In this document: positions 20,649 through 55,180 of the stretch, in pieces
How the letters are laid out: each line of letters starts with the position of its first letter
Numbering within the stretch: position 1 is the stretch's first letter
DNA from: Actinomadura sp. NBRC 104425
GTDB lineage: Bacteria; Actinomycetota; Actinomycetes; Streptosporangiales; Streptosporangiaceae
Direction of reading: 5' to 3'
Assembly: GCF_030269545.1 (NCBI RefSeq)
Contig: NZ_BSTN01000008.1
Coordinates: 186,001-250,000 of the forward strand
Length of the DNA: 64,000 nucleotides
Translations under genes and position numbers: made by a program
Notes under the pieces: model-generated
What the model was told of the DNA's origin: nothing
Database searches by the model: none
Seen by the model: the letters and a program-made list of their open reading frames with translations, nothing else

Positions 20649-20821
20649 CCCCGTGCCCCTGGGCGCTCCTACAGGTGCGGTGAATGCGAGGACCCTCGAC
20701 TCCCCCGAGAAGAGTCCATGCGACGGCATGCTACCCAGCCGAATCCCGTGTGCTCATGGCCGGATCGCGCCAGAATCCCAGGGACGTTGCTTTTCCGATT
20801 CGGTCCGTAAAGGTGATGGCT

Positions 20822-24636: not shown

Positions 24637-25470
24637 CTACTTGGCGACCTTGCGGGTGAACACGCGGACCGACAGCGCCGTCAGGGCCGCTGCGAGGACG
24701 CCGAGGACCGGCAGGACCACCCATGTCGGCATGTGGGCGACCTGCGGCGTCAGCGCGGCGCGCAGCCCCTCGTTCATGTAGACGATGGGGTCGGCGAGCA
24801 CCACGGCCTGCAGCCAGCGGACCTCGTCCAGGGCCTCCCACGGGAAGTAGACGCAGCCGAGCATGATGGCCGGCAGCATGACGACGGTGAACAGCACCTG
24901 GGTCTGCTGCGGTTTGAGCAGCGTGCCGAGCAGCAGCCCGGCGGCGGACGCGGTCAGCGCGCCCAGCAGCACGACGGCGGCCAGCAGGATCCCGTCGTCC
25001 ACGCGGACGTCGGGCGCCTGGCCCTCGGCGTGCACGAGCAGCACCGCGGGGAACACCAGCAGCCCGCCGATGAGGCCCTGCACCATCGCCGAGCCGATCT
25101 TCTGCAGGGCGATCATCCGGACGGGCAGCGGGGCCAGCAGCCGGTCCTCGATGGACGACGGCGGGGTCAGCTCCATCACCAGGGGGAACACCACGGCCAT
25201 CAGCGACTGGGTGATGACGGTGGAGCCGACCAGGCCCGGCACCAGGATGGTGGAGAACGGCGTGTCCCCCGCCGCGTCGCCCGGCACGGTGCCCCGCCCC
25301 ATGAGCCCGGCCTCCGGCAGGACGTAGGCGAACACGAAGGCGAAAAGCAGCGGCTGCAGGACGATCCGGATGACGCTGGACACCAGGCTGCGGCGCATGA
25401 CCCGCAGGTCGCGCGCCACGGTGGCGGTCAGGGCCCGGGCGGGCCCGGCGTCGTGCTCGATCGCGGTCAT
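24637..25470 (-). CDS. ABC-2 type transport permease (DrrB-like)
   Basis: 277 residues with six predicted membrane helices of the ABC-2 family. It begins with a short cytoplasmic region (DLRVMRRSLVSSVIRIVLQPLLFAFVFAYVL). The conserved segment IEDRLLAPLPVRMIALQKI follows, and CVYFPWEALDEVRWLQAVVLADPIVYMNEGLRAAL precedes the last helix. It should pair with the ATPase at 25467 to export the NRPS product or confer self-resistance. The ATG (25468-25470) overlaps the ATPase stop in ATGA. It is the last gene of the 27-kb operon. Confidence 0.92.
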   Translation of the reverse strand: MTAIEHDAGPARALTATVARDLRVMRRSLVSSVIRIVLQPLLFAFVFAYVLPEAGLMGRGTVPGDAAGDTPFSTILVPGLVGSTVITQSLMAVVFPLVMELTPPSSIEDRLLAPLPVRMIALQKIGSAMVQGLIGGLLVFPAVLLVHAEGQAPDVRVDDGILLAAVVLLGALTASAAGLLLGTLLKPQQTQVLFTVVMLPAIMLGCVYFPWEALDEVRWLQAVVLADPIVYMNEGLRAALTPQVAHMPTWVVLPVLGVLAAALTALSVRVFTRKVAK

Positions 25471-26489
25471 TCCCGGTACTCCCGTCCGGTCAGCGTCAAA
25501 AAGACGGTCTCCAGGCTCGGCCGCTGCTGCGACGCGTCGGCGACCGTCGCGCCCGCGGCCGCGCCGAGCGCCACCAGCTCGCCGAGCAGCCCGTCGGCGT
25601 CCCGGGTGAAGACGCGGACGCTGCCGCCGGCCTGCTCCACCCGCTCGACGCCGCGCCGCGCGCGGACGCCGGACAGCTCGGGCACCGGGCCGTCGTAGGT
25701 CACGGTGACCACGGTCTCGGCCTCCACCGCGGCCTTGAGCCCGTCCACGGTGTCGCAGGCCAGCACCTCGCCGCGGTCGATCACGGCGAGGTGCCGGCAC
25801 AGCGCCTCGGCCTCTTGGAGGTAGTGCGTGGTGAGCAGCAGCGTGTGCCCGTCGGCGTGCAGTTCGCGCAGCAGGTCCCACAGGTTGAGCCGGGTCTGCG
25901 GGTCGAGTCCGGCGGTCGGCTCGTCCAGGAAGAGCATCTCGGGCCGGTGCACGAGGGCCCGGCAGATCATGACGCGGCGCAGCTGCCCGCCGGACAGCTG
26001 GTGCGGCATGGCGTCGCGGCGGCCGGCGAGGCCGAACCGCTCCAGCAGCTCCCCGGCGCGGCGGCGCGCCGCGCGGGCGCCCATGCCGAAGTAGCGGCCG
26101 CGGAACTCCAGGTTCTCCGCGACGGTCAGGTCCCGGTCCAGGGTGCCGCCCTGGGACACCACGCCGATCCGCCGTTTGACCTCGACGGGGGCGGCCGTCA
26201 CGTCGTGGCCGAGGACCTCCGCGCGTCCCCCGGTGGGGCGCACCAGCGTCGTGAGCATGCCGATCGTGGTGGACTTGCCGGCCCCGTTGGGGCCCAGCAG
26301 TCCGAAGAAGTCCCCGCGCGGCACGGTCAGGTCCAGCCCGCGGACGGCCTCGACCGGTTGCCTGCGCCCCCGGTAGGTCTTGCGCAGGTCCACGGCGCGG
26401 ACGGCGGGCGGGACGGGCCCGGCGGCCGCCGCGTCGGAGGCCACGGCGTCGGCGGCCGCGGAGCCGGTGGTCACAGATTCGGTGGGCAT
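25467..26489 (-). CDS. ABC transporter ATP-binding protein (DrrA-like)
   Basis: 340 residues. Walker A is GPNGAGKST near residue 65, the signature LSGGQLRR near 165, Walker B MLFLDEPTAGLD near 187, and the switch His is in LLLTTHYLQEAE. A C-terminal domain typical of DrrA-type drug-export ATPases follows. An unusual Ala-rich N-terminal 30 residues (AAADAVASDAAAAGPV) precedes the fold. The ATG has GGAGG four bases upstream and lies 11 bases after the P450 stop, so it belongs to the biosynthetic operon. Confidence 0.94.
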   Translation of the reverse strand: MPTESVTTGSAAADAVASDAAAAGPVPPAVRAVDLRKTYRGRRQPVEAVRGLDLTVPRGDFFGLLGPNGAGKSTTIGMLTTLVRPTGGRAEVLGHDVTAAPVEVKRRIGVVSQGGTLDRDLTVAENLEFRGRYFGMGARAARRRAGELLERFGLAGRRDAMPHQLSGGQLRRVMICRALVHRPEMLFLDEPTAGLDPQTRLNLWDLLRELHADGHTLLLTTHYLQEAEALCRHLAVIDRGEVLACDTVDGLKAAVEAETVVTVTYDGPVPELSGVRARRGVERVEQAGGSVRVFTRDADGLLGELVALGAAAGATVADASQQRPSLETVFLTLTGREYRE

Positions 26490-26500
26490 CGTTCCTCCCG

Positions 26501-27745
26501 TCACCAGGTCACGGGCAGCGACCGCAGCCCGAAGCTGACCGAGTGCTCGCGGAACACCAGGTCCTCCTCGCGCACCGCCACCCGCAGGTCCGGGAACCGG
26601 CGCAGCAGCGCCGGGTAGGCGAGCCGCATCTCCATCCGGGCGAGGCCGGCGCCCAGGCAGTGGTGGATGCCGTGCCCGAACGCCAGGTGCGGCACCGGCG
26701 GCCGGGTGACGTCGAACTCGGCCAGGCCGTCGCCGAGGGCCTCGTCGCGGTTGGCCGACACCAGCGAGCAGACCAGCAGCTCGCCCGCGCGGACCAGCCG
26801 GCCCGACAGCGTGACGTCGTGGACGGCGGTGCGCGGGGTGGAGGTCGGCACGACGGAGATGTAGCGGAGGATCTCCTCCACCGCGGCGGCCGCCGCCTCG
26901 GGCTTGTCGCGGACGATGGCGGCCTGGTCGGGGTGGGAGAGCAGCAGCACGGTGCCGAGGCCGAGCATGTTCGCCATGTTCTCGTGGCCCGCCAGGACGA
27001 TCAGGGCGGCCATCCCGGCGAGCTCGTCGTCGGAGAAGTCCGCGCCGTGCTCGGCGACCAGCCTGGCCAGCAGCCCGCCGCCGCTGCCCTGCCCCTTGCG
27101 CTGCTTGCGGACCAGGTCGCGCAGCATGGCGTGCGACTGCATCACGGCGGCGGTGCGTTCGGCCTCGTCCTTGTCGAAGTCCAGATGCGGGTTGCTGAGG
27201 CGCAGGAACTCGGCGCCGTCGGCGTAGGGGATGCCGAGGATCTCGCTGATCACCGCGAGGGGGACGGGCCGGGCGAACGCCTCCATCAGGTCGGCGGGCG
27301 CTTCCCACTCCTCGATGGCGTCCAAGTGCTCATCGATGATCGCCCGGACGCGAGGCTCCAGCCGCCGCATCTGCGCCATGGTGAACTCGGCCTTGAGGAT
27401 GTTGCGGAGCCGGGTGTGCTCGGGCGGGTCGCTGTGCAGCAGGCCGGCGGCCAGGCCCGCGGGTTTGCCGCCTCCTTCGCCGCCTCCTTCGCCGGGCCCG
27501 TCGCCGGTGTCGTCGGCGGTGCCGGGCGGCGGGCCCAGCATGGCGCTGCTGAAGCGGGTGTAGTCCCCGAAGACGGTGCGCACGTCCTCGTGGCGGGCGA
27601 CGAGCCAGGCGGGTAAGCGAACCGGGCCGAGCGTCACCTCGATCCTGCTGACCGGTTCTTCGGCGCGCATGCGGTCCAGCTCGGGCACCGGGCGCAGGCC
27701 GTCCCGCCGGACGTAGACGGGGGCTTCGGGTGGGGCTTTCGACAT
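26501..27745 (-). CDS. Cytochrome P450 of the NRPS operon
   Basis: 414 residues. The heme loop is FGHGIHHCLG (ligand Cys363) and the K-helix ExxR is Glu291-Arg294. The I-helix reads AGHENMAN: the Thr usually following the acidic residue is replaced by Asn256, which may alter oxygen activation. Residues 72-96 form a Gly/Asp/Glu-rich insertion in the B-C region. A role in beta-hydroxylating carrier-bound Tyr, or in cross-linking Hpg/Tyr rings, is plausible from context but unproved. The ATG at 27743-27745 has AAGGGA at seven bases; one 18 bases upstream lacks a site. Codon 44 (27616-27614) is TTA. Confidence 0.92.
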   Translation of the reverse strand: MSKAPPEAPVYVRRDGLRPVPELDRMRAEEPVSRIEVTLGPVRLPAWLVARHEDVRTVFGDYTRFSSAMLGPPPGTADDTGDGPGEGGGEGGGKPAGLAAGLLHSDPPEHTRLRNILKAEFTMAQMRRLEPRVRAIIDEHLDAIEEWEAPADLMEAFARPVPLAVISEILGIPYADGAEFLRLSNPHLDFDKDEAERTAAVMQSHAMLRDLVRKQRKGQGSGGGLLARLVAEHGADFSDDELAGMAALIVLAGHENMANMLGLGTVLLLSHPDQAAIVRDKPEAAAAAVEEILRYISVVPTSTPRTAVHDVTLSGRLVRAGELLVCSLVSANRDEALGDGLAEFDVTRPPVPHLAFGHGIHHCLGAGLARMEMRLAYPALLRRFPDLRVAVREEDLVFREHSVSFGLRSLPVTW

Positions 27746-27776
27746 GTGGGTTCCCTTCGGCATGCGTGTCGCGGCG

Positions 27777-28598
27777 TCAGCCGCGCTCGTACCCGAACTC
27801 CCGGAGGCACGCGGCGAAGTCGCCGCCGCCCTCGGCCCGCCGCCGGTAGGCGGCCTCGACGTCCGGGCCGATGAAGTCGAGGGACTGGTTGTGCAGGCCC
27901 TTGCCGACGAACTCGCCCTGCCCGCCGAACGGGCTGAACCCGGGGGCGTCCAGGGCGCTGCGCCGCTCCAGGTCGCGCATCACCTCGAAGGTGGAGTTGG
28001 CCACCGCCTTGTCGATGACGTCGTCGCCGAGCGGCCGCCCCAGGTCGAGGAACTCCAGGATGCGCCGGAGCCATCCGGCCGGGTCGGCGCGCATGTCCTC
28101 GTACTTGACGGGGAGCACCTCGATGTTCGGGAAGTGGGTGCGGATCGTGTCCCGGTCGGTCCAGCTGCGCACGTTGGTCGTCCACGACCCCTGCCCGAAG
28201 TGGTCGCGCCAGAAGGAGTGCCCCTCGTTGGCGATGAAGTCCTCGGCGAACCTGCGGCAGCTCGCCAGGTCCGTGCGGGGGATGCCCATGTGGCGCATCG
28301 CGCTGAGCATCACGTCGCGCGGGTTGCGGATGAGGTAGACCGCCTTGGCGGTCTGCTCCCGGTAGAGCTGCATGAGGCCGACGTCCGGTAGGAAGTGGGT
28401 CTTGGCGAGGAGCCGGTCGGCGCCGTCGCCCACGGGGAGGGTCTCGCCGCCGCCGAGCATCTTGTGCAGGTCCGGCACGGCGGTCTGCAGCTGGTCGATG
28501 GACGTCACGGGCCCGTCGTTGAGGTAGGCGGTCAGCATGAAGCGCAGCCAGGTGTTCCCGGCCTTGGGGTAGGAGGCGATCCAGGCGATCTCGGTCAT
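27777..28598 (-). CDS. PAPS-dependent sulfotransferase, StaL/Teg-like
   Basis: 273 residues, full length for the family. The PAPS 5'-phosphosulfate loop is SYPKAGNTWL (residues 9-18), the catalytic base His68 lies in KTHFL, and the 3'-phosphate site is RNPRDVMLSAMRH (Arg91, Ser99). The C-terminal FVGKGLHNQSLDFIGPDVEAAYR matches the end of glycopeptide sulfotransferases such as StaL of A47934, which sulfate Hpg phenols. It starts 8 bases after the last NRPS gene. The likely acceptor is a phenol of an Hpg or Tyr residue of the peptide. Confidence 0.92.
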   Translation of the reverse strand: MTEIAWIASYPKAGNTWLRFMLTAYLNDGPVTSIDQLQTAVPDLHKMLGGGETLPVGDGADRLLAKTHFLPDVGLMQLYREQTAKAVYLIRNPRDVMLSAMRHMGIPRTDLASCRRFAEDFIANEGHSFWRDHFGQGSWTTNVRSWTDRDTIRTHFPNIEVLPVKYEDMRADPAGWLRRILEFLDLGRPLGDDVIDKAVANSTFEVMRDLERRSALDAPGFSPFGGQGEFVGKGLHNQSLDFIGPDVEAAYRRRAEGGGDFAACLREFGYERG

Positions 28599-28606
28599 CG
28601 GTGTCC

Positions 28607-31600
28607 TCACGGTCGTGGGTGGATCTCGGGACTCGGTTCGGTGCCCGTCTCCTGCGGGGACGGGACGCGGACGCCGCCCACGCGCAGCTGCGGGTCGGCG
28701 GCGACCTGCCGGAGGACCTGCACGAACCCCCGGGCGAGGAGTTCGGCCGCGGGCCGGTCGAAGCGGCGGGTCGAGTACCACAGCGCCCCGTCCAGGCCGG
28801 ACGGCGCGCCGCCGGCGGCCGCGCGCAGGTGGAACGCCAGGTCGGACTCGGCCGCCCGGATCCCGTCCACCGGCAGCAGCGGCCTGGTCTGCAGGCGGGG
28901 CAGCCGCCAGGGCGGTGCGGGCAGGTTGTCGACGCCGAGCATGACCTCGGCCAGGGGGCCGCCGCCGGGCCGCAGCGCGTCCAGCAGCGGGTCGAGCGGC
29001 AGGTCCTGGTGGGCGAAGGCCCGCAGGTCGGCTTCGCGGACGCGGCGGACCAGCTCGGCGAAGGCGGGGTCGCCGCTCACGTCGGTGCGCAGCACGAGGG
29101 TGTTGGCGAACAGGCCGATGGCGTCGCTGAGCCGGGCGTCGGTGCGGCCCGCCGTCACGGTGCCGATCGGGATGTCGCAGCCGGCGCCCAGCCGGTGCAG
29201 CAGCGTCGCCAGGGCGGCCTGGACAACCATGAACAGCGTCGCCCGCTCCTGCCGGGCCAGTTCGGCGAGCGCGGCGTGCACCTGCGGGGCGACGTGCAGC
29301 GGCACGGTGTCCCCGCGCGGGACGGGACGGGGCGCCGACGGCTCGGGCGCCCTCCGCGGCTGCGGCGGCGCCGGTGTCGGCAGTGCGGGCAGCGCGGGCG
29401 GCGACGGCGGTTCCGGCAGCGCCGGCTGCGCGGGCAGGGGCGGCCGGGCGGGCGGTGCCGGCAGCCCGAACGGCGACGGCGGCTGCGGCGGCCGGGGCGG
29501 GCGGGGAGGCCGGATCGGCAGCGGCAGGCGTTCGGGGATGTCGGCCAGGACGCGCCGCCAGAACGCCAAATGCTCCCCGGCCGCGGCACCGTCCGGGGCG
29601 CCGCCGTCCGGTGCGGGGTCGCCGAGGAGCCGCCGCTGCCACAGGGCGTAGTCGGCGAACTGCACCGGCAGCGGCGGCCACTGGGGGCCGGTCCCGGCCA
29701 GCCGCGCCGCGTAGGCCTTGGACAGGTCGGCGGCGAGCACGCCCATCGACCAGCCGTCGGCGATCAGATGGTGCGCGACGATGAGCAGCGCGTGCTCGTC
29801 GGGTCCGAGCCGGAACAGGGTCGCCCGGATCGGCGGCTCGGCCGCCGGGTCGAGGTCGTCGTGCGCGGCGGCGGCCAGCCGCTCCTCGAAGTCGGCCGGG
29901 CTCGACGGCACCACGCGCAGCGGCACCCGGGCCGGTCCGGGCGGCAGGACCTGTTGGCGCGGCACCCCGTCGACTTCGGGGAACAGCGTGCGCAGGGCCT
30001 CGTGCCGGTTCACCACGTCCTGGAACGCCAGCCGCAGGGCGGGCACGTCGAGCCGTCCGCGCATGTGGACGGCGAGCGGGATGGTGAAGCGCAGGCCGCT
30101 CCGGCGTGCGGCCGACCAGATCCGCTCCTGGCCGAAGGACAGCGGCAGCTCGGGCGGGCGCGGCGGCGGGACCGCCGGCGGGGCGGCCGCGGCGCGGGAC
30201 GCGAACCGGACGAGCTCCGCCGGGGTCGGCCGGGTGAACAGGTCGCGGATGCCGATGTCGGTGCCGAGCGCCGTGCGCAGCCGCGCGACCAGGCGCCTGG
30301 CCAGCAGGGAGTCTCCGCCGAGGTCGAAGAAGCCGTCGTCGGCGCCGACCGCGGGCAGGCCCAGCACCTCGGCGAACAGCCCGCACACGATCTCCTCCTG
30401 CGGGGAGCTCGGCGCGCGTCCGCCTTCGCTTGCGAACACCGGCGCGGGCAAGGCGTCCCGGTCGACCTTGCCGTTGCCCGTCAAAGGCAGGGACTCCACC
30501 ACGACGACGGCGGCCGGGACCATGTACTCGGGTAACCGGTCGGCGACGAACCGCCGGACCGCGGAGCCGTCCACCTCGCCCACGACGTAGCCCACGAGGC
30601 GCCGCGCTTCGCCCTCGCCCCACACCACGACCGCGGCCTGGGTCACGCCCGGGCACGCGGCCAGCACCACTTCCACCTCGGCGGGTTCGACGCGGAAACC
30701 GCGGATCTTGACCTGGTCGTCGGCGCGGCCCACGAACACCAGCTCGCCGTCGGCGGTCCACCGCACCAGATCCCCGGTGCGGTACATCCGCTCCCCCGTG
30801 CCCCACGGGCACGCCACGAACCGCTCGGCCGTCAACGCCGGCCGGTTCCAGTAGCCGCGCGCAAGCCCTTCTCCGGCCAGGTACAGCTCGCCGACCACGC
30901 CGACGGGCACGCGCCGCAACGCCTCGTCCAAGACGAACACCCGGCGGCCCGGCAGCGGCCCGCCGATCGGCACCACCTCACCCAGGTCCTCACCCGGCTC
31001 CACCACGCGCCAGGTGGCGCACAACGTCGTCTCAGTCGGCCCGTACAAATGCCGCACCCGCACACCCGGCACCTTTTCCAGGACGCGTTCCACCGCACGC
31101 ACGGGGACCACGTCGCCTCCGGTCGCCACCTCCGTCAGTCCGGCGAACACGCCGACGTCCTCGTCCGCCAGGACCCGGAACAGGCCGGCCGTCAGATGCA
31201 CCGCCGACAGGCCGAAGTCGGCCTTCATCCGGCGCAGCACCGCGCCATCGACCTGGCCGTCGGGGGCGACCACGACCCGGCCGCCGCGCAGCAGCGGCAC
31301 CCACACCTCGAACAGGGACGCGTCGAACACGTGCGGGGCGTGGAACAGCACGCCGTCCGCGTCGCCCCATCCGCCGTTCAACGCCAGCCCGGCCAGGTCG
31401 CGGTGCGTGACGACCACGCCCTTGGGCACGCCCGACGACCCGGAGGTGTACATCAGGTAGGCCGCGTTCTCGGGGTGCAGGGCGACCTGCGGCGGGCGGG
31501 ACGCCGTGCGGGTCTTGAGCTCGTCCACCGGAACCCACGGCGTTCCGGCCGGCACCAGGCTCGCCAGTTCCGCTGTCGTCACCACCACGCCGACCCCGGC

Positions 31601-33246
31601 ATCGTCCACGGCGAACCTCACCCGGTCGGGCGGAGCGGACGCGTCCAGGGGCACGAAGACGCCGCCCGCCATCAGCACACCCAGCCAGGCCACTACGACG
31701 TCCACGCCGCGCGGCAGCAGCACCCCGACCCGGGACTCGGCGGTCACGCCGCGTTCCGCCAGGCCGCCCGCCGCCGCCCGGCCCAGTTCCCGCAGCTCCC
31801 GGTATGTCAGGCGCGCTCCGTCGCCCTCCACCGCGACCCGGCCGCCATGGCGGGCGGCCACGGCCTCGAACGCGTCCACCACGACGCCCGCCCCGGCCGC
31901 GGCGCCGGTGTCGTTCGCCCGGCGGAACAGTTCCGCCTCGCCGCGCGTCAGCACGTCCAGGTCGCCCACGGGACGCCCGGGGGCGGCGGACATCTGGCCG
32001 AGCACGTCGAGCAGCCGCTCCAGCAGGTCTTCGACGAACCCTTCGGTGAGCGCGTCCGTCCGGTAGGCGCCGCCGAATCTCAGCCGCTCGCCGGGGAACA
32101 CGGCGAGGCTGAGCGGGTAGTGCGTGAGCGACCTGCCGTTCATCCGGATGTCGAGCGCGTCGCGGCCGGGGCTCTGGCCCGGGTCGTCGCGCGGGTAGCT
32201 CTCGTAGGCGAGGAGGGTGTCGAACCGGGCCGCGGGACCGGCGCAGCGCTGGATCTCGGCCAGTCCGAGGTGCTGGTGCGGCAGCAGCGCGGCCTGGCTC
32301 GCCCGCAGCCGCGCGAGCAGGTCGGCGACCGTGCCCGCCGGGTCGAGCCGGACGCGGACCGGCACGTTGTTGATGAGCAGCCCCACCATCTCGTCCACCC
32401 CGGGCAGCTCGGGCGGGCGGCCGGAGACCACGGTGCCGAACACCACGTCGTCGCGGCCGGTGAGCCGTCCCAGCACGACGCCCCATGCCGCCTGCACCAC
32501 CGTGTTGAGGGTGGTGTCGGCGGACTTGGCCAGCGCCTCCAGGGCGCGGGTGAGTTCTGCGCTCGCCGTCCTCTCCAGGTAGCCGCCGTCGACGGTCGGC
32601 GCCGTGGGGCCGGACGGCACCAGCAGGGTGGGCTCGTCCACTCCGGCCAGTTCCGCCCGCCACGCCGCACGCGCGGCGTTCTTGTCCCGCTGCGCCAGCC
32701 AGGCGAGGTAGTCGGCGAAGGGCGCGGCGGGCGGCAGGCCGCCGGCGTCCCCTCCGGCCGCGTAGATCTGCGCCAGTTCGCGCCTGAGCACGAACAGCGA
32801 CCAGCCGTCCATGAGGAGGTGGTGGCTCGTCATCACCAGCAGGTGCCGTTCAGGGGCGAGGCGGAGCAGCAGCAGCCGCAGCAGCGGCGGCCTGGTCAGG
32901 TCGATGCGGCGGGCCGCCTCCTGCGCGGCCAGCCGGTCCGCCTCGGCCTCGGCGTCCGCCTCGGACAGGTGGGACAGGTCCCGTTCGCGCCACGGCAGCG
33001 CCACCCGGTCCGGAATGATCTGCACCGGCGCGTCTAGCCGCGCGGGCTGGCGGAAGCAGGCCCGCAGGCTGGCATGCCGGTCCAGCAGCGCCTCCCAGGC
33101 GGCCTTCAGCACCGCCGCGTCCAGCCGCCCCCGCAGGTCGAAGAAGTTCTGCACCTGGTAGACGTCCGGTGCGTCCTGGTCGTAGAGGGCGTGGAACTGC
33201 AGGCCCTCCTGCAGCGGGGTCAGCGGCCAGACGTCCCTGACACGGT

Positions 33247-33253
<7 letters not shown>
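28607..33253 (-). CDS. NRPS, one Hpg-type module plus terminal condensation domain (C-A-T-C)
   Basis: 1548 residues. C (about 1-450; HHLLMDGWS near 143; N-terminus [20 protein letters not shown]-donor type). A (about 470-950; YTSGSSG near 595) with code residues D-A-F-H-A-G-L-L-C, an Hpg-type code with one change. T (LGGDS near 975). A second C (about 1040-1548; HHLIADGWS near 1160), complete in its HHxxxDG motif and ending the protein with no thioesterase. This C has a Pro-rich insertion of about 65 residues (about 1247-1310). The ATG overlaps the upstream NRPS stop by seven bases; a GTG at 33250 is possible. Codon 907 (30535-30533) is TTA. It is expected to add the last residue. Confidence 0.93.
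29325..29514. repeat. Proline-rich low-complexity insertion in the terminal C domain
   Basis: Encodes runs such as [16 protein letters not shown] and [22 protein letters not shown], placed where other C domains here read [17 protein letters not shown]. It is in frame and GC-rich, made from short CGG-type repeats. Confidence 0.8.
30420..31440. repeat. A-domain repeat, copy 1 (most diverged)
   Basis: The A-domain core shares long near-identical stretches with copies at 34788-36537, 42460-44203 and 48840-50160, e.g. the segment around 30960-31090. Boundaries are approximate. Confidence 0.75.
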
Positions 33254-40857
<7,604 letters not shown>

Positions 40858-40858
40858 G

Positions 40859-43800
40859 TCAGGTCCCCCACTCCTCTTCCAACAGGTCGATGTCGTCCTG
40901 GGTGACGGCCACCAGCGGCAGGTCGGACGGCGTCCGGCCGCCCAGGTCGGGTCGGTCCGCGGCGTCGGCGAGGAGCGCCAGGACGCGCACCCAGGTGTCG
41001 GCGAGGCGGCGCACCTCGGGTTCGGACAGCTCGTCCGGCTGCCAGGCGAACACCGCCGTCAGCCTCGGCCCGACCGCGTCCGGCACGGCGGCCACGTCGA
41101 TCTCCAGGGGGCGTCCGGTGACCGGCGCGGCGGGGCGCTCCGGGCCGCCGGTCACCGGGGTCCACGGTCGCCGGGCCGCTCCGCTGTCCGCGGCGGGCCG
41201 ACCCAGGTAGTTGAACGAGACGGCGGGCGCGCCGAGCTCGGCCAGCGCCGCGGCGGCGTCCTCGTCGAGATGGCGCAGGATCCCGTAGCCGAGGCCGTCT
41301 CCGGGCACGGCGCGCACCTGCTCCTTGACCGTTTTGACGACCCGGCTCAGGGCGGCGCCGCCGGTGCGCGCCTCGGCCCGGTCGACCGGCCCCGGGTCCA
41401 GCCTGACGGGGTGGGTGCCGGTGAACCAGCCGACGGTGCGGCTCAGGTCCAGCCCGGCCGCCGGGTCCCGGCCGTGCCGCTCCAGTTCCACGACGAGCGC
41501 GCCGCCGCCGTCCGGCGCGACGGCCAGCGCCGCCAGCAGCACCTCTTCGACGGTGGCGTGGAAGGCCGCCGGGATGTCGCGCAGCAGCCGCTCCGTCACG
41601 TGCGGCGGGACGGTGACCTCGTGCACGGCGGCGGGCCCGGTGCGCGGGGGGCGCGGCCGCCACCGGTCGGCGGCCGCGGCGCCCGGTCCGCCGGCGTCGA
41701 GGATCGATCGCCACACCGGCAGTTCGGCGCGCCGCTCGGCGGAGCGGGCGGCGGCGTGCAGCCGTTCCGCCCAGGTGCGGAAGGACGTGGCGACCGGTTC
41801 GAGCTGGGGGGCGCGTTCCGCCGAGACGGCCCGCCAGGCGGCGTCGAGGTCGGGGAGCAGGATGCCCCAGGAGACCGCGTCCACCGCGAAGTGGTGCGCG
41901 ACCAGGAGGAGCTGCCCGTTCCTCCGCGGGCCGGCGTCGTACCAGACCAGCTGCAGCATCACCCCGGCGTGCGGGTCCAGCCGGGCCGCGGCGGCCCGCA
42001 GGTGCTCGGCGGCCATGTCGTCGACGGCGTCGTCGCCCAGCGGCGCCACGTCGATCCGGCGGATCAGCGCACTCGCCGGGACGGTGGCGGCGGCCGGGAC
42101 CTGGAGAACCGGGCCGCGGTCGCCGTCGACGAGCCTGGCGCGGAGCATGCCGTGATGGTCGAGGACGGCCTCCACCACCCGGGCCAGCCGCTGCTCGTCC
42201 AGCCCGGGGGGCGTCCAGATCCGCATCGCCTGGTGCAGGTGCGCGAGTTCCCCGCGCTGCCGGGCGGCGTGCATGACGGGGGTCAGCGGCACGGTGCCGG
42301 TGGCTTCGTCGTGCGCCCGCCGGGCCGGTGCCTGCTTCGCGACGGCGTGCGCGGCGAGCTTCTCGGGCGTCTTGTGCAGGAACACCTCGCGGGTGGTGAT
42401 GCCGATGCCCGCCTTGGCGGCCTGGGACACCAGGCGCAGCGAGACGATGCTGTCGCCGCCGAGTTCGAAGAAGCCGTCGTCGGCGCCGACCCGTTCGACG
42501 CCGAGCACGTCGGCGAACAGGTCGCACAGCCGCTGCTCCAGGGGGGTGCGGGCGGCGCGTCCGCCGGCGGTGAACTCCGGGTCCGGCAGCGCGTCGCGGT
42601 CCACCTTGCCGTGTGCGGTGACCGGCAGCTCCTCCACCACGACCACCGCTGCGGGAACCATGTACTCCGGCAACCGCTCGGCGGCCGCCTGCCGGATGTC
42701 GGCGCCGTCCACATCGCCCACCACGTAGGCCACCAGGCGGCGGGCGGCCTCGTCGCCCCGGACCACCACCACGGCCTCAGCCACTCCTGGAAGCTGCGCC
42801 AGCACCGCTTCCACCTCGGCGGGCTCGACGCGGAAACCGCGGATCTTCACCTGGTCGTCGGCGCGGCCCACGAACACCAGCTCGCCGTCGGCGGTCCACC
42901 GCACCAGATCCCCGGTGCGATACATCCGCTCCCCCTTGCCCCACGGGCACGCCACGAACCGCTCGGCCGTCAACGCGGGCCGATCCCAGTAGCCGCGCGC
43001 AAGCCCCTCCCCGGTCAGGTAAAGCTCGCCGACCACGCCGACCGGGACCCGCCGCAACGCCTCGTCCAGCACGTACACCCGGCGGCCCGGCAGCGGCCCA
43101 CCGATCGGCACCACCTCACCCAGGTCCTCACCCGGCTCCACCACACGCCAGGTGGCGCACAGCGTCGCCTCGGTCGGCCCGTACAAATGCCGCACCCGCA
43201 CACCCGGCACCTTTTCCAGGACGCGTTCCACGGCTCCCACCGGAACCACGTCGCCACCGGTCAACACCTCACGCACCCCGGTGAAGCACTCGGGCGACTC
43301 CTGTGCCAGCACGCGCAGCAGACCCGCTGTCACGTGCACCGCGGTCACGCCGTGGGTGTCGATCTGCTCGCAAAGGACACGGCCGTCCACCACACCCTCG
43401 GGGGCCACGACCACCCGGCCGCCACGCACCAAGGGCACCCACACCTCGAACAACGACGCGTCGAACGCATGCGGAGCATGCATCAACACCGCACCGTCAG
43501 CACACGACCAACCTGAGGCGACCACCAGCGCGGCCACGCTGCCATGCGGCACCACCACGCCCTTCGGCACACCCGACGACCCCGACGTGTACATCACATA
43601 GGCCGCGTCACCGGCACCCACCGGCACGGCATGCGGCTCGCCGTCGAACACCAGATCCTCGAGCACCACCACCGGCAGACCGTCGGGGACCTGCTGCCGG
43701 GTGGCCCGCGTGCACACCACGACCCTGCACCCGGCGTCGTCCATCACGAAGGCGATGCGTTCCGCGGGATAGGCCACATCCACCGGGACGTAGGCCGCGC

Positions 43801-46800
43801 CCGCCTTCCACACGCCCAGCAGAACGGGCACCACGTCCACCGAACGCGGCATCACCACGCCGACCCGATCCCCGCGGCCCACACCCAAAGCCGCCAACCG
43901 AGCCGCGAACACCCCCGCCGCGCGGTCCAACTCGGCATACGACAACGACCGGTCCCCATCGACCACCGCCACCGCGTCCGGCGACCGCTCCACCTGACCA
44001 CCGAGCAGATCCACCACCGAACCGCCGAGCACATCAGCGGCCTCACCCACACCGGCCCGCTCCAGCAACCCGACCTCGGCCGCCGTCAACACCTCAAAAC
44101 CGCTCACACGACGGCCGGGGTCACCCACCGCCTGCTCCAAAACCCCCACCAGACGCTCCACCAGACCCACCACCGAGCTCTCATCGAAGAGGTCGGTGGC
44201 GTACAGCACCTCGCCTTCGATTCCGGCCGGGTCGCCGTCGGCGGTGCGGCGTTCGCGGATGCCGAAGACGAGGTCGAACTCGGCGGTGTCGGGGGCGACG
44301 GGTTCGGTGGTGACGGTCAGGCCGGGCAGCTCCCATTCCTCGACGGGGAAGTGCAGGGCGGTCAGCATCACCTGGAAGATGGGGTGGCGGGCGAGGGAAC
44401 GCGCCGGGTTGATCTCCTCGACCAGGAGCTCGAACGGCACGTCCTGGTGGGCGAACGCCTCCAGGTCCACCTCGCGCACCCGGTCCAGCAGGTCCGTGAA
44501 CGTCGGGTCGCCCGCCAGCGACGTGCGCAGCACCACCGTGTTGGCGAAGAACCCGATCAGGTCGTCGAGCACCGCGTCGGAGCGGCCCGCCGTCACCGTG
44601 CCGAGCGGGACGTCCTCCCCCGCGCCCATCCGGTGCAGCAGGGTGGCGAGCGCCGCCTGCACGACCATGAAGACGGTCACGCCCTGCTCGCCCGCCAGTC
44701 CGACCAGCCGCCGGTGGAGGTCCGCGGGGACCGACCACGGCACCACGTCGCCGCGGTGGGACGCCACCGCGGGCCGCGGCCGGTCGGTCGGCAGCGGCAG
44801 CTCCTCGACCACGCCGTCGAGCGTCTTGCGCCAGTACGCCAGTTCCTCCTCAAGGACGCCGTGCCGCTCCAGCAGTTCCCGCTGCCACACGGCGAAATCG
44901 GCGTACTGCACGGCGAGGGGTTCCCATTGCGGTGCGGCGCCGCGCACCCGGTTGCCGTAGGCCGTGCACAGGTCGCGCACCAGCACCCCGGACGACCAGC
45001 CGTCCCACGCGATGTGGTGCAGCACCACCAGCAGGAGCCACTCGTCCGCGGCGACCTCGAACAGCATGACCCGCCAGGGCAGTTCGCCGCCCACCTCGAA
45101 GCCCTGTCCGGCGACCGCGCGGACCGCCGCGTCCAGCTCCTCCTCCCCGACGCGGGCCGTGACCAGGCGGATGCGCGCCTGCTCCGGGGGCAGGACGTGC
45201 TGGTACGGCACCCCGTCGGTCTCGGGGTAGACGGTGCCGAGCACCTCGTGGCGGTCCACCACGTCCTGCAGCGCCGCCTGCAGCGCCGGTACGTCCAGTT
45301 CGCCGCGCAGGCGCACCCCGAGGGCCATGTTGTAGGCGGAGCCAGCCTCCTCCAGCCGGTTGAGGAACCACATGCGCCGCTGCCCGAAGGACAGCGGGAC
45401 CTTCGACGGGCGTACGGTGCCTTCGACCGGGGGGCGCACCGCCCGGCCGCGCCTGCCCAGCCGGGCCAGTGCCGCCGGGGTCGGGTCGTCGAAGAAGTCG
45501 CCGATCGGCACCTCCACGCCGAGGGCGGTGCGCAGGCGGGCGAGCAGCCGCATCGCCAGCAGCGAGTCCCCGCCGAGTTCGAAGAACCGGTCGTCGGCGC
45601 CCACGTCGCGCAGGCCGAGGAGTTCGCCGAACAGTCCGCAGACGATCTCCTCGGCGGCGTCGGCGGGGCGTCGCCCGGACGGGGCCGGGGTGTGGTCCGG
45701 GACGGGCAGCGCCTGCCGGTCGAGCTTGCCGTTGGCGGTGACCGGCAGCGCGTCCATCCGCACCACGGCCGAGGGCGTCATGTGCTCCGGGAGCCGCTCG
45801 GCCAGGAAGTCCTTCAGTTCCGCCGGGCGGGCCTCCCCGACCACGTAGGCGACCAGCCGCCGGTCGCCGGGCCGGTCCTCGCGGACGGTCACGGCGGCCT
45901 GCGCGACCCGCGGGTGGGCGGCCAGCATCGCCTCGATCTCGCCGGGTTCGACGCGGAAGCCGCGGATCTTCACCTGGTCGTCGGCGCGGCCGACGAACAC
46001 CAGCTCGCCGGCGCGGGTCCAGCGGACCAGGTCCCCGGTCCGGTACATCCGTTCGCCGTCGCCCCACGGGCAGGCCACGAACCGCTCGGCGGTGAGCGCA
46101 GGGCGGTCCCCGTATCCGCGGGCCAGCCCGTCGCCCGCAACGTACAGTTCGCCGACCACGCCGACCGGCACCTGCCGCAGCGCCCCGTCCAGCACGAACA
46201 CGCGGGTGTTGCGGAGCGGCCGCCCGACGGGCACCGGGTCGTCGCCCGCCAGCGGGCCGCTCATCAGCGCGCAGACGGTGGTCTCGGTCGGCCCGTAGGC
46301 GTTGATCATCCGGCGTCCGGGGGACCAGCGCGCCGCCAGCGCCGGCGGGCACGCCTCGCCCGCCACCACCAGGGTCGCCAGTTCGGCGGGCAGCCCGCCG
46401 TCCTCGGCGGCCGCCGCCAGCACCGAGGGCGGCAGGGTGACATGGGTGACGCGCCGCCTGCGCAGCAGGTCGCCGAGCGGGGCCGCCGGCGGCATGTCGC
46501 GGGGGTCGGCAAGCACGAGCGTCGCGCCGGCGAACAGCGCCATGCAGACCTCGGAGATCGCCGCGTCGAAGCCGAGCGCGGCGAACTGCAGCACCCTGGC
46601 GTCGGGGCCGACCGCGAACCGTTCGATCTGGTCGGCCGCCAGCCCGGCCAGTCCGGCGTGGGTGACCAGCACCGGCTTGGGCGTCCCGGTCGACCCCGAC
46701 GTGTAGATCATGTAGGCGGGGTGGCGGACGTCGAGCGGTGCGAGCCGTTCGCCGTCGGTCACCGGCCCGGAGGGGCGTGACGCGACCGCCCGGGCGCAGT

Positions 46801-49800
46801 CGGGGTCGTCCAGTGCGACCACCGCGGCCGGTGCGGCGCCGTCCGGGAGGGCCGCCGCCTGGCGCACCGTCGTGACCACGCAGACCGGGCGGGCGTCGGC
46901 GAGCATGAACGCGATCCGCTCCGCCGGATAGCGGGGGTCGATCGGCAGGTACACCGCGCCCGCCAGCGACACCGCGAGCATGGCGACGAGCTGGTCGGCC
47001 GAGCGCGGAACGGCGACGGCGACGCGCCGCTCGGGGCCCGCGCCCAGGCCGATGAGGTGGCGGGCGAGGCGCGCGGCGCGGGCGTGCAGGTCCCGGTAGC
47101 TCAGTTCCAGGTCCTCGAACACGACCGCCGTGGCATCGGGGGTGCGCGCCGCCTGCTCCTCGAACAGCCGCGCGAAGGGCGCCGCCCGCACGGGCCGGGC
47201 CGTGTCGTTCGCCTCCCGCAGCAGTTCGCGTTCGGCGGGCGTCAGCACGTCCAGGTCGCCGATCTTCACCTGCGGGTCGGCGACGATCTGCTCCAGCAGG
47301 CCGGCCAGCCGGACGGCGATGGCGTCGGCGGTCGCGTGGTCGAACAGGTCCGCCGCGTAGTGGATGTCGCCGTCGATGCCGGCGGGCGCCCCGTCCTCGG
47401 TGCGGTTCTCGGTGAGGCTGAACGACAGGTCGAGCCGGGCGGCGTCGCCGTGGACGCGCAGCGGTTCGGCGTGCAGGCCGGGCAGGTCCCAGGACGGTTC
47501 GGGCGCGTCCTGGAAGATCACCGCCACCTGGAACAGCGGGTTGCGGGCGAGCGCCCTGGCCGGGTTGAGGTCGTCGACGAGCTGGTCGAACGGCAGGTCC
47601 TGGCGGCTGAACGCGTCGATGGCGGTGCGCCGGACCCGGTGCACGAGCTCGGCGAAGGCCGGATTCCCGGCGAGGTCGGTCCGCAGCACGAGGGTGTTGG
47701 CGAAGAACCCGACCGTCCCGCGCAGGTTGGCGTCGGTCCGTCCGGCGGTGACCGTGCCGATGGGGATGTCGGTTCCGGCGCCCAGCCGCGACAGCATGGC
47801 CGCGACCGCCGCGTGCACCACCATGAACACCGTCGCCCGTTCCCGCCGGGCCAGCTCCACCAGTGCCGCATGGGTGCGCGGCCCCAGCGACAGCCGGACG
47901 GTTCCGCCGCGGTGGCTGGGCACGGGCGGGCGCGGCCGGTCGGTGGGCAGCGGCAGTTCCTCCGGGGCCCCGGCGAGCGTCTCCCGCCAGTACGCCAGCT
48001 GCCGGGTGAGCAGGTCCTCGCCTCCGTCCTCGTTGCCGCCGCCGCTGAGCAGGCGCTGCTGCCAGAGCGTGAAGTCGGCGTACTGGACCGGCTCGTCCGG
48101 CCATGCCGGGGCCTCTCCGGCCGCGCGGGCGGCGTAGGCGGTCGACAGGTCCGCGGCGACGATGCCCGACGACCATCCGTCCAGTGCGATGTGGTGGACG
48201 ACGAGGAGCAGGACCCGGTCGTCGGCGCCGAGGTCGAACAGCTCGGCGTGGAAGGGGAGTTCGTCGGCGAGGGCGAACTCCCGTGTCGCCCTCGCCGACA
48301 GCACACCCGGCAGCTCGTCCTCGGTGACGCTGCTGCGCACGAGCCGGACCGGCGCCTGCTCGGGAGGCAGGATCCGCTGGCGCGGCACTCCGTCCGTGTC
48401 GGGATAGGTCGTCCGCAGCACCTCGTGGCGGGTCACCACGTCTTCCAGCGCGGCGTGCAGGGCCGGCACGTCCAGCGGCCCCCGCAGCCGCACCGCCAGC
48501 GTCATGTTGTACGCGGCGCCCGCGTGTTCGACCTGGTTGGCGAACCACATCCGCCGCTGGCCGAACGACAGCGGGATCTCGTCCGGCCGCGCCGTCCTTT
48601 CCACGGGCGGCCGTGCGCGCCTGCCCTGGGCCGCGGCGCGGGCGAGCCCGGCCGGTGTGGGGTCCGCGAACAGGTCACCGATGTCCACCTCGGCGCCCAG
48701 GGCTTCGCGCAGCCGCACGACCACCCGCATCGCCAGCAGGGAGTCTCCGCCGAGGTCGAAGAAGCCGTCGTCGGCGCCGACCGCGGGCAGCCCCAGTACC
48801 TCGGCGAACAGCCCGCACACGATCTCCTCCTGCGGGGAGCCCGCCGCGCGTCCGCCTCCGCTTGCGAACACCGGGTCCGGCAGCGCGTCGCGGTCCACTT
48901 TGCCGTGCGCGGTGACGGGCAGCTCGTCCAGCACGACCACGGCCGCCGGAACCATGTACTCGGGCAACCGCTCGGCGGCCGCCTGCCGGATGTCGGCGCC
49001 GTCCACATCGCCCACCACGTAGGCCACCAGGCGGCGGGCGGTCTCGTCGCCGCGTACCACCACCACGGCCTCAGCCACTCCTGGAAGCTGCGCCAGTACG
49101 GCCTCCACCTCGGCGGGCTCGACGCGGAAACCGCGGATCTTCACCTGGTCGTCGGCCCGGCCCACGAACACCAACTCGCCATCGGCGGTCCACCGCACCA
49201 GATCCCCGGTGCGGCACATCCGCTCCCCCTTGCCCCACGGGCACGCCACGAACCGCTCGGCGGTCAACGCCGGCCGTTTCCAGTAGCCGCGCGCCAGCCC
49301 TTCTCCGGCCAGGTACAGCTCGCCGACCACGCCGACCGGCACGCGCCGCAACGCCTCGTCCAGGACGAACACCCGGCGGCCCGGCAGCGGCCCACCGATC
49401 GGCACCACCTCACCCAGGTCCTCACCCGGCTCCACCACGCGCCAGGTGGCGCACAGCGTCGCCTCGGTCGGCCCGTACAAATGCCGCACCCGCACACCCG
49501 GCACCTTTTCCAGGACGCGTTCCACGGCTTGCACCGGAACCACGTCGCCACCGGTCAACACCTCACGCACACCCGCGAAGCACTCGGCAGACTCCTGCGC
49601 CAGCACACGCAGCAGACCGGCTGTCACATGCACCGCGGTCACACCGTGGGTGTCGATCTGCTCGCGCAGCACCCGGCCGTCCACCACGCCCTCGGGGGCC
49701 ACGACCACCCGGCCGCCACGCACCAACGGCACCCACACCTCGAACAACGACGCATCGAACGCATGCGGCGCATGCATCAACACCGCACCATCAGCACACG

Positions 49801-51760
49801 ACCAACCCGACGCCCCCACCAACGCGGCCACACTGCCGTGCGGCACCACCACACCCTTCGGCACACCAGACGAACCCGACGTATAGATCACATACGCCGC
49901 ATCACCAGGCCCCACCGGCACAGCGCGCGGCTCGCCTGCGAACGCCAGATCCTCGACCACCACCACCGGCAAACCGTCGGGAACCTGCCGCCGCGTCGCC
50001 GGTGTACAGACCACGACCGAGCATCCGGCATCGTTCAGCACGTAGCCGATGCGTTCCGCCGGATACGCCACATCCACCGGAACGTAAGCCGCGCCCGCCT
50101 TCCACACCCCCAACAGCACGGGCACCACGTCCACCGAACGCGGCATCAGCACGCCGACACGGTCCCCGCGCCTCACTCCCAGATCCGCCAACCGAGCGGC
50201 GAACCCTCCGGCGGTGGTGTCCAACCGCTCATACGTCATCGAGTGGACGCTGTCGCAGACCGCCACCGCGCCGGGCGACCGGCCGGCCTGAGCGGCGATC
50301 ATCTCCGGCACCGTCGCCGCGCTCATGGGGCCGCCGACCGCGTTCGCACGTTCGTCGAACAGGTCCACTTCGTCCCGGGTGAGCACCTGGAATGCGCCGA
50401 CACGGCGTCCCGGGTCGGCGGCGGCCTGCTCCAGCACCCCCACGAGACGCTCCGCCAGCGCCGCCGCGGTGCGCTCCTCGAACATATCGACCGCGTAGAG
50501 CAGGTCGCCGTCAAGGCCCGCCGGGGCGCCGCCGGCGTCCCGGCGCTCGGTGAGATAAAAGGACAGGTCGAACATCTGGAAGGACGACTCCGGCCGTCCG
50601 ACCAATGCGTCGAGCCGTTCGGGGGCCGCTGCCAGGCCCGGCATATTCCAGGCCGGCTCGGGAAAGTCGTCGATGACGAGAAGGGTCTGGAAAAGGGGAT
50701 GGCGCGCGAGCGACCGCCTCGGCCGCAATTCGTCCACCAGGAAATCAAAGGGGACGTTCTGATGGGCGAAAGCCGCCTGGTCCGCCTCGCGTACGCGCGC
50801 CAGCAGCTCGACGAAAGTCGGATCACCGTGCAGCGGCGTGCGCAGCACGACAGTGTTCGCGAAGAACCCGACGAGGTCGTGCAACGCCGCGTCGGGGCGG
50901 CCGGGCGTCACCGTGCCCAGCGGTATGTCCGCGCCCGCGCCCATCCGGCTCAGCAGGAGGGCCAGTGCCGCCTGCACCACCATGAACAGGGTGACGCCCT
51001 GGCGGGCGGCCAGCTCGTGCAACGCGGCGTGGAGCCGCGGGTCGATGCGCAGCGGGACCACCGCGCCGCGGTGGGACGCCACCGCGGGCCGCGGCCGGTC
51101 CGCCGGCAACGTCAGCTCCTCCGCCGCCCCGTCCAGCGCCCGACGCCAGTACTTCAGCTCCCCCGCCAGCGCATCTTCGTCGGCCAGCAGCTCGCGCTGC
51201 CACACCGCGAAGTCCGCGTACTGCACCTTCAGCGGTTTCCACCCGGGGGCGCGCCCGTGCACGCGCTCCGCGTAGGCGGTGCACAGATCACGCACCAGCA
51301 CTACGGACGACCAGCCGTCCCACGCGATGTGGTGCAGCACCACCAGCAGGACCCGCTCGTCCTCGCGCACGTCGAACAGCGTCACCCGCCAGGGCAGTTC
51401 GCCGCCGAGGTCGAAGCCCTGCGCCAGCTCCGCGCCGACGGCCGCACCGATCTCGTCCTCGCGGACGCGGACCGTGCGCAGCGCCGGCAGGGCGTCCGGG
51501 TCCGTGCGCACCTGCTGGCGCGGCGCGCCGTCGACCTCCGGGTACACGGTGCGCAGCACCTCGTGCCGCTCGGCCACGTCGTGGAGCGCGCGCTGCAGGG
51601 CGGAAACGTCCAGCCGACCGCGCAGCCGCACGCAGAACACCTGCCGGTAAACCGCGCCGTCGCGCTCCAATTTATTGGCGAACCACATCCGCTGCTGCCC
51701 CGGCGACAACGGAATCACGTCCGGCCGCGGTCCGGCGATAATCGCGGATTCCTTGCTCAT
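40859..51760 (-). CDS. NRPS, three modules (C-A-T-C-A-T-C-A-T-E)
   Basis: 3633 residues; first gene of the operon. C1 (LCL-type start [27 protein letters not shown] near 142), A1 (near 618; code D-A-F-H-L-G-L-L-C, Hpg), T1 (near 1000). C2 (HHIALDGWS near 1189), A2 (near 1683; code D-A-S-T-V-A-A-V-C, the Tyr/beta-hydroxy-Tyr code of glycopeptide NRPSs), T2 (near 2060). C3 (near 2247), A3 (near 2720; Hpg code), T3 (near 3098). E (about 3200-3630; HHFAVDAVS near 3287, [26 protein letters not shown]), mostly canonical, so residue 3 is probably D. It begins with a C domain although no loading module precedes it. The weak GGGAAT site lies upstream of the ATG. Confidence 0.95.
42460..44203. repeat. 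A-domain repeat, copy 3
   Basis: Partner of copy 2 (34788-36537); the T-domain end and the A-domain core are almost identical at DNA level, although they sit in different proteins before different E domains. Confidence 0.85.
48840..50160. repeat. A-domain repeat, copy 4
   Basis: Shares the Hpg A-domain core with copies 2 and 3 (e.g. 49260-49560 against 35280-35580), while its T domain and the flanking C domains differ. Boundaries are approximate. Confidence 0.8.
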
Positions 51761-53701: not shown

Positions 53702-53734
53702 CGTGGCTCCTCCCCCCTGTCCGCCCCCATCTTC

Positions 53735-53749: not shown

Positions 53750-53766
53750 AAAGTCATCTCGAAGTG

Positions 53767-55174: not shown

Positions 55175-55180
55175 CGCCCC

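What the first reader, a model, noticed from the sequence alone, without database searches (positions are those of the whole stretch)
24637..51760. A six-module, Hpg-rich NRPS operon with sulfotransferase and P450: a candidate undescribed sulfated phenolic peptide
Seen: six A domains in three proteins; reading specificity positions against GrsA gives D-A-F-H-L-G-L-L-C three times and D-A-F-H-A-G-L-L-C once (Hpg type), D-A-S-T-V-A-A-V-C (Tyr), and one unassigned code. Known: such Hpg and Tyr codes are typical of glycopeptide, nocardicin and CDA systems. Inferred product: Hpg-Tyr-D-Hpg-X-Hpg-Hpg, oxidised by the P450, sulfated, and exported by the DrrAB pair. The module order matches no glycopeptide, complestatin, feglymycin or nocardicin order that I know.
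Basis: partly seen in the sequence, partly recalled or inferred. Interest (0 to 1): 0.88.

Follow-up and report, generated by a model that had tools for sequence, protein, structure and literature searches.

The report
Orphan six-module sulfated-peptide assembly line
An actinomycete chromosome carries a seven-gene operon that should build a six-residue peptide made mostly of hydroxyphenylglycine and add sulfate to it; it shares parts with vancomycin-type pathways but lacks their usual docking and release parts, so its product and its way of letting go of the peptide are open and untested.

Summary
On the minus strand, 24637-51760, three NRPS proteins carry six modules: C-A-T, C-A-T, C-A-T-E / C-A-T, C-A-T-E / C-A-T-C. 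Recomputed codes: DAFHLGLLCK (three times), DASTVAAVCK, DVFSVAIVYK, DAFHAGLLCK; the four Hpg-type A domains nest in the Hpg/Dpg clade of a glycopeptide-type (GPA) cluster. Sulfotransferase, P450 and an ABC pair follow.

The sulfotransferase is StaL/Teg-like. The P450 scores best against OxyB, but so does a control P450 without an NRPS nearby; it falls outside the Oxy clade and lacks PRDD. Nothing over 43% identical to the sulfotransferase was found in 64 other genus genomes, 393 of the class, or a pattern scan of named genomes.

Most likely an orphan operon for a sulfated Hpg-rich hexapeptide, perhaps released by the terminal C domain: a new variant, not a GPA. Product unproven.

The parts
40859..51760 (-). 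NRPS1 (3633 aa): C1-A1(Hpg)-T1, C2-A2(Tyr)-T2, C3-A3(Hpg)-T3-E3, ending in a TPSDLPLV...IDLLE tail (COM-donor-like, label recalled)
50381..51760 (-). C1, an N-terminal condensation domain before the first A domain; HHIAWDG intact; sister of C3 (100/98) in the LCL-type group
40961..42226 (-). E3 epimerisation domain (HHFAVDA)
33247..40857 (-). NRPS2 (2536 aa): C4-A4(code DVFSVAIVYK, unassigned)-T4, C5-A5(Hpg)-T5-E5
33637..34665 (-).
28607..33256 (-). NRPS3: C6-A6(Hpg, DAFHAGLLCK)-T6-Cterm; likely start MVNRV at 33256 (the longest frame runs to 33529)
28655..30187 (-). Terminal condensation domain, HHLIADG intact, no A, TE or X domain after it; groups with C1-C3 (81/87), not with a GPA X domain
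29333..29518 (-). 62-residue Pro-rich linker (30 Pro) between the two lobes of Cterm; low confidence (probably disordered) in the model
27777..28586 (-). Sulfotransferase of the StaL/Teg kind (YPKAGNTW and KTH shared with the L009 enzyme)
26501..27763 (-). Cytochrome P450; likely start 27745; PYAD in place of PRDD, AGHEN in the I helix
25467..26504 (-). DrrA-like ABC ATPase (301 bits, just under the NCBIfam cut-off of 312.45)
24637..25470 (-). ABC-2 permease (DrrB model 41 bits, far below its cut-off of 223)
23766..24380 (-). ECF sigma factor; may or may not belong to the cluster
22651..23769 (-). Companion of the sigma factor, probably its anti-sigma protein (weak DUF5666 match below cut-off; role inferred)
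21813..22508 (+). LmbU-family transcriptional regulator (183 bits, cut-off 125)
17943..20729 (-). Large ATP-binding LuxR-type (LAL) regulator; 40-50% identical over parts to a LAL beside HpgT on contig C16
16654..17844 (-). StrR-like regulator (family name recalled; 48% identical to another such protein on contig C21; no curated family model supports the name)

Best explanation
A stand-alone biosynthetic operon for a sulfated, Hpg-rich hexapeptide. Shown by sequence: three NRPSs in operon order, six modules, two E domains placed before D-type C domains, Hpg/Tyr/unknown/Hpg codes, StaL-type sulfotransferase, P450, ABC exporter. Inferred: NRPS1 makes Hpg-Tyr-D-Hpg, hands it to NRPS2 (X, D-Hpg) and NRPS3 (Hpg), giving Hpg-Tyr-D-Hpg-X-D-Hpg-Hpg on T6. 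The terminal C domain then releases it, most likely by internal attack (macrocyclisation) or by a free amine, because the operon has no TE. The P450 oxidises an aromatic residue, and the sulfotransferase sulfates a phenol. Hpg is drawn from HmaS/Hmo/HpgT genes elsewhere in the genome. The neighbouring StrR-like and LAL regulators probably switch the operon on. The N-terminal C1 is most simply read as a remnant of a C-A duplication of module 3, or as an acylating starter domain.
For: Domains and codes. C4 and C6 fall with C domains of the GPA-type cluster (97/99); C1-C3, C5 and Cterm fall in the other, LCL-type group. COM-like tails end NRPS1 and NRPS2, not NRPS3. Hpg A clade. Hpg supply in the same genome: HmaS-like at C21:90291, best PDB hit 2r5v at 327 bits (table name PCZA361.1, recalled as HmaS; next 3zgj, named HPPD, 309 bits); Hmo-like at C21:87338 and HpgT-like at C16:10346. 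Sulfotransferase: StaL/Teg chains 206-239 bits, next chains (cytosolic sulfotransferases) at most 67.1. Cterm keeps HHxxxDG and is modelled with a C-domain fold. None of the 14 TE matches of the genome is on the window's contig C8. A review says terminal C domains can release peptides (PMC11546977, passages).
Against: No chemistry is known. Cterm is diverged, lacks a few residues in its C lobe and carries a long linker, so it may be inactive. Module 4 has no assigned substrate. E5 departs from the usual E motifs (HHLVVDE, ESCGRA). No canonical StrR site (GTCCAR-N17-YTGGAC) with up to 2 mismatches exceeds chance in the window (6 against 9.07 expected). No MbtH match on C8 (five elsewhere).
Confidence: 0.5

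Rival explanations
1. A reduced glycopeptide-type pathway: the P450 makes an aryl or aryl-ether cross-link between phenolic side chains on the NRPS-bound peptide, as OxyB does, with the terminal C domain standing where the X domain would be.
For: The six best PDB chains (297-327 bits) are four named OxyB plus 5ex6 and 1lfk, which I recall as OxyB enzymes; the best chain that I take as non-Oxy is 5it1 at 251. The control P450 shows a much smaller gap (OxyB 326, other P450s 312 and 307). Sister to the Oxy clade at 84/79. Its I helix has Asn where most P450s compared have Thr, as OxyB does (AGHEN, AGDDN). Hpg/Tyr side chains and a StaL-type sulfotransferase are present.
Against: The Oxy rows form a clade without it at 98/96. 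It has PYAD, as some ordinary P450s of the genus do, where the three Oxys of L009 have PRDD, the motif that contacts the X domain (PMC5238595, passages; PxDD in PMC6565677, passages). There is no X domain: Cterm has HHLIADG, not HRxxxDD. A control P450 with no NRPS domain in 40 kb also has OxyB as best hit, and it is the closest row by identity.
Confidence: 0.3
2. The operon is the middle of a longer line: C1 receives a chain from, and Cterm passes it to, NRPS subunits encoded elsewhere in this NRPS-rich genome (71 C-type matches).
For: The line both starts and ends with an LCL-type C domain; another NRPS (C49, L005) also has the code DAFHLGLLC.
Against: COM-like tails lie at the inner junctions only, none at the end of NRPS3; the operon has its own exporter and adjoining regulators; G006 holds like Hpg supply genes in a cluster of its own, without a sulfotransferase closer than 41%.
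Confidence: 0.12
3. Terminal C domain is dead; the peptide is released by hydrolysis or by a free-standing TE such as the one at C17:6795.
For: Pro-rich linker, short deletion and longer branch of Cterm; a TE in a 349-aa frame exists in the genome.
Against: The HHxxxDG residues are kept and a C-domain fold is predicted; that TE sits beside an NRPS frame with a TE of its own and an MbtH gene.
Confidence: 0.25
4. N-acylated (lipo)peptide: C1 is a starter C domain that adds an acyl group to Hpg1.
For: C1 precedes the first A domain and has an intact motif; starter C domains are placed so in lipopeptides (PMC11546977, passages); an AMP-binding enzyme of 575 aa lies on contig C21.
Against: No acyl ligase or ACP was seen in the window; C1 groups with the chain-internal C3 at 100/98. 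No known starter domain was in that tree, so this is weak.
Confidence: 0.3

Closest known systems
Glycopeptide antibiotics with sulfate (A47934/StaL, Teg; reference here: GPA-type cluster of Streptomyces sp. WAC 04229, L009/L058)
   Same: Hpg A domains of one clade, Tyr-type module, E then D-type C junctions, sulfotransferase (43% to that of L009); StrR-like and LuxR regulators, as in dbv and tei clusters
   Different: Six modules not seven, no X domain, no TE, one P450 outside the Oxy clade without PRDD, no Dpg-type module; no halogenase or glycosyltransferase was seen in the operon; residue order differs
Nocardicin (recalled: Hpg-Arg-D-Hpg-Ser-Hpg)
   Same: Alternation of Hpg with other residues, D-Hpg at position 3
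   Different: Six modules, Tyr at 2, no TE, no HHHxxxDG C domain
Terminal C domains that release the chain (fungal CT, PMC11546977 passages; PDB 8z0q HtmB2-CT, seen by title only)
   Same: C domain with intact HHxxxD motif at the end of the line and no TE
   Different: Groups with the line's own LCL-type domains; carries a Pro-rich lobe linker; release not shown
A40926/teicoplanin regulator pairs Dbv4/Dbv3 and Tei15/Tei16 (PMC6022936, passages)
   Same: StrR-like gene next to a large LuxR (LAL) gene
   Different: No GTCCAR-N17-TTGGAC site in the window; an LmbU-family regulator is present too

Membership tests
Glycopeptide antibiotic cluster | Seven-module NRPS (heptapeptide, PMC6565677) | tested here: not met
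   six A/T modules
Glycopeptide antibiotic cluster | X domain (HRxxxDD/E) after the last T | tested here: not met
   Cterm HHLIADG; groups with C1-C3, not with the L009 X domain (HRILADD)
Glycopeptide antibiotic cluster | C-terminal thioesterase | tested here: not met
   no TE in NRPS3 by Pfam; no match on contig C8
Glycopeptide antibiotic cluster | Oxy P450 with PRDD | tested here: not met
   PYAD; outside the Oxy clade (98/96)
Glycopeptide antibiotic cluster | Hpg-activating modules | tested here: met
   by code and clade only; no assay
StaL/Teg-type sulfotransferase | Closest to StaL/Teg, PAPS-site motifs kept | tested here: met
   206-239 bits against at most 67.1 for cytosolic sulfotransferases; alignment (motif roles recalled)
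StaL/Teg-type sulfotransferase | Sulfates a phenol of an Hpg/Tyr peptide | not testable with these tools
   needs enzyme assay
[quoted passage not shown]
Terminal releasing C domain (CT) | Catalyses release or cyclisation | not testable with these tools
   needs enzyme assay
Nocardicin-type synthetase | C domain with HHHxxxDG and a TE (criterion recalled) | tested here: not met
   none of the seven C domains has the extra His; no TE
StrR-like / LAL regulator pair | Sequence kinship to such proteins in the genome's other NRPS clusters | tested here: met
   48% to the L025 protein; 40-50% over parts to the L055/L047 LAL, which lies beside HpgT
StrR-like / LAL regulator pair | GTCCAR-N17-TTGGAC operator at the target genes | tested here: not met
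   no exact site in the window; 6 near matches against 9.07 expected
Piperazic-acid module (for module 4) | Codes such as DVFSVAAYAK, and a piperazate synthase in the genome | tested here: not met
   DVFSVAIVYK differs from those in the three letters after DVFSVA; no FMN_bind_2 match in the genome (that KtzT belongs to this family is recalled)

The most novel reading that the evidence does not exclude
A sister lineage of glycopeptide assembly lines that never had, or lost, the X domain: an intact C domain occupies the X position and itself closes the ring, while an Oxy-like P450 lacking the X-contact motif cross-links Hpg/Tyr side chains without X-domain recruitment, giving a doubly constrained, sulfated cyclic hexapeptide. 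It would let one test how the X domain arose from a C domain.
Probability: 0.15. Interest if true: 0.78.

Novelty: new variant of a known kind. Interest (0 to 1): 0.5.

Why it matters
Sulfated Hpg peptides known to me are few and mostly glycopeptide antibiotics. This operon combines GPA-type A domains and sulfotransferase with a different end of the line (terminal C domain, no TE, no X). If its P450 cross-links, this chemistry does not need the X domain; if Cterm cyclises, it adds an actinobacterial case of C-domain release. Either way it is a compact seven-gene target for expression and a possible new antibiotic scaffold. The bare fact of another orphan NRPS cluster would be ordinary.

Tried and rejected
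Piperazic acid at module 4: set aside, since the code differs from published ones after DVFSVA (passages) and no FMN_bind_2 protein was found in the genome.

X domain: rejected for Cterm. Sequence and fold searches alone do not settle it: X domains rank high in both.

'Best hit OxyB' as proof of cross-linking: rejected after the control P450 of G087, with no C or A domain in the 40 kb fetched around it, gave OxyB as best hit too.

StrR operator in the window: none beyond chance. The exact pattern occurred in 4 of the 58 loci fetched by then, L026, L030, L047 and L055; the L047 site is one of the two in L055, so four distinct sites, three in this genome and one in G006.

Wider relatives of the operon: the sulfotransferase query matched 2 of 65 genus genomes, the own one included (the other, G006, at 41% in a different cluster; also 2 of 59), 1 of 394 class genomes at E up to 1e-35, the own one, and 5 loci in genome contigs, 43% at best and 25-29% for the other four. 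That last scan needs an exact eight-residue stretch and may leave out the window's own genome, so remoter relatives may be missed. The P450 query scored only 28 candidates per genome.

Rows dropped before counts: C-domain tree, 41 domain hits became 37 rows (two Cterm pieces joined, three duplicates left out); A-domain tree, 22 of 33 hits; P450 tree, 17 rows (six of the 20 left out as near duplicates or without heme motif, three PDB chains added; L034 gave no row, so 13 of 14 loci). The frames taken for L020 and L022 were wrong ones, so those two rows mean nothing. No reference starter C domain was available for the C tree.
Full report
What is there. Seven minus-strand genes run head to tail from 51760 to 24637: NRPS1, NRPS2, NRPS3, sulfotransferase, P450, ABC ATPase, ABC-2 permease. 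Stops and starts overlap or lie a few to some tens of bases apart at the six junctions read. C and A domain profiles find no NRPS in the window besides these three frames.

Modules. C4 and C6, which follow the E domains, group with C domains of a GPA-type cluster (97/99), while C1, C2, C3, C5 and Cterm lie in the other (LCL-type) group. COM-like tails end NRPS1 and NRPS2, and NRPS3 has none (label recalled).

Codes. A1, A3 and A5 read DAFHLGLLCK, A6 DAFHAGLLCK, A2 DASTVAAVCK, A4 DVFSVAIVYK. In the GPA-type cluster of Streptomyces sp. WAC 04229 (L009/L058) I find DIFHLGLLC, DALHLGLLC (Hpg-type), DPYHGGTLC (Dpg-type) and DASTLGAIC (Tyr-type) (amino-acid labels recalled). I recall that strain as a pekiskomycin producer; a legend seen gives pek for WAC1420, so I rely on the sequence only. 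The window's four Hpg A domains form one clade (100/100), joined to three A domains of that cluster (94/89), inside a 100/99 clade of 9 rows. A1, A3 and A5 are about 90% identical in DNA. A6 is 48-72% identical to them over the first 750 bases compared, which hold code positions 235-301, and 91-97% over the next 450, a sign of exchange between modules.

End of the line. NRPS3 ends in a C domain with HHLIADG. It groups with C1-C3 (81/87) and not with the X domain of L009, which has HRILADD. A 62-residue linker with 30 prolines lies between its two lobes; AlphaFold2 (mean pLDDT 77.9, eight sequences) gives a C-domain-like fold with nearly all of this stretch below 50. Foldseek's best matches are C and X domains alike. 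There is no TE in NRPS3, and none of the 14 TE matches in the genome lies on this contig. A review states that terminal C domains can release chains (PMC11546977, passages). Hence release by Cterm is my first choice, but it is inference.

Tailoring. The sulfotransferase scores 206-239 bits against StaL and Teg chains; the next chains, cytosolic sulfotransferases, reach at most 67.1. The P450's six best PDB chains are four named OxyB plus 5ex6 and 1lfk, recalled as OxyB enzymes. As a control I took the nearest P450 found in the genus (G087, 50%), with no C or A domain in the 40 kb fetched around it: its best hit is OxyB too (325.6 bits), though other P450s follow closely (312.5, 306.6), whereas for the window's P450 the best chain that I take as non-Oxy scores 251 (that 7tta/7ttb/7tto are Oxy enzymes is recalled; 6m7l is so titled). 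In a 17-row tree the Oxys form a 98/96 clade without it, and it is their sister at 84/79, not shown firmly; the control P450 is its closest row by identity (48%), and holding those two together is not rejected (p-AU 0.078). It has PYAD where Oxys have PRDD, the motif that contacts the X domain (PMC5238595, passages; PMC6565677, passages). Absence of the X domain and of its contact motif agree with each other. Whether the enzyme cross-links or hydroxylates is open.

Hpg supply. Searches of the genome with the HPPD/HmaS model and with an Hmo-HpgT protein list no match on the window's contig C8. HmaS-like lies at C21:90291 (best PDB hit 2r5v at 327 bits, next 309), Hmo-like at C21:87338 (67% to the G006 protein; one TGA inside the hit, perhaps the gene's own stop) and HpgT-like at C16:10346 (72%). 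Exact GTCCAA-N17-TTGGAC sites, the published StrR-like operator (PMC6022936, passages), occur close upstream of the HpgT and MbtH genes on C16 (L055), of a DpgA-like frame on C21 (L026) and of HmaS in G006 (L030), but not in the window.

Regulators. Beside the operon lie a StrR-like gene (16654-17844; 48% to one on C21), a LAL gene (17943-20729; 40-50% over parts to one beside HpgT on C16), an LmbU-family gene (21813-22508) and an ECF sigma factor with a companion. A StrR-like plus LAL pair is what dbv and tei clusters have (PMC6022936). So the cluster may reach to about 16650.

How rare. The sulfotransferase query matched 2 of 65 genus genomes including the own (the other at 41%), 1 of 394 class genomes, the own one, and 43% at best in named genomes (pattern-based, so remote kin may be missed). 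The best P450 match listed in the genus outside this genome is 50% identical (28 candidates scored per genome).

Literature. The listings show no paper that describes such a cluster; the held library lacks most subscription journals, and I read passages only. MIBiG was not available.

Verdict. I file it as an orphan NRPS operon, a new variant that shares parts with GPA pathways and fails four of the five GPA features tested. Odds: hexapeptide line with phenol sulfation about 0.7, release by Cterm about 0.45, cross-linking P450 about 0.3; 0.5 for the main picture as stated.

Noticed in passing
L024/L025 (G000:C21:1-40000) and L029 (G006:C1:640001-660000): Another NRPS cluster with DLTKVGHIG codes (Asp-type, label recalled), an AMP-binding enzyme and two tandem StaL-like sulfotransferases, seen in two species of the genus: StaL-like enzymes beside an NRPS of another kind.
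   Followed up: partly
L029:16644-19097: An 817-aa frame that joins an Hmo-like and an HpgT-like half in G006; in the window's genome the two halves match different contigs.
   Followed up: partly
L026:12289-13422, L055:7191-8561: Type III PKS-like (DpgA-like) and crotonase-like (DpgC-like) genes near HmaS and HpgT (Dpg names recalled): the genome may also make Dpg for a further NRPS cluster.
   Followed up: partly
29333-29518: Pro-rich linker of 62 residues coded by a GC-rich imperfect repeat inside a C domain; could also be a hard place for assembly.
   Followed up: partly
30440-50305 (A domains, approximate): Blocks of 91-100% DNA identity between A1, A3, A5 and A6 next to more diverged blocks (down to 48% for A6): exchange between modules.
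   Followed up: yes
51972-51989: Inverted repeat ATGACC-N6-GGTCAT about 210 bases upstream of NRPS1, a possible operator; not tested against chance.
   Followed up: no
20991-21821: Small lipoprotein-like frame with relatives (34-44% over parts) beside the other NRPS genes of the genome (L024, L027).
   Followed up: partly
52505-63799: ROK-family repressor, then frames that look like a sugar ABC transporter, a beta-glucosidase and further glycoside hydrolases (read by eye): an ordinary sugar-uptake neighbourhood that probably bounds the cluster.
   Followed up: no
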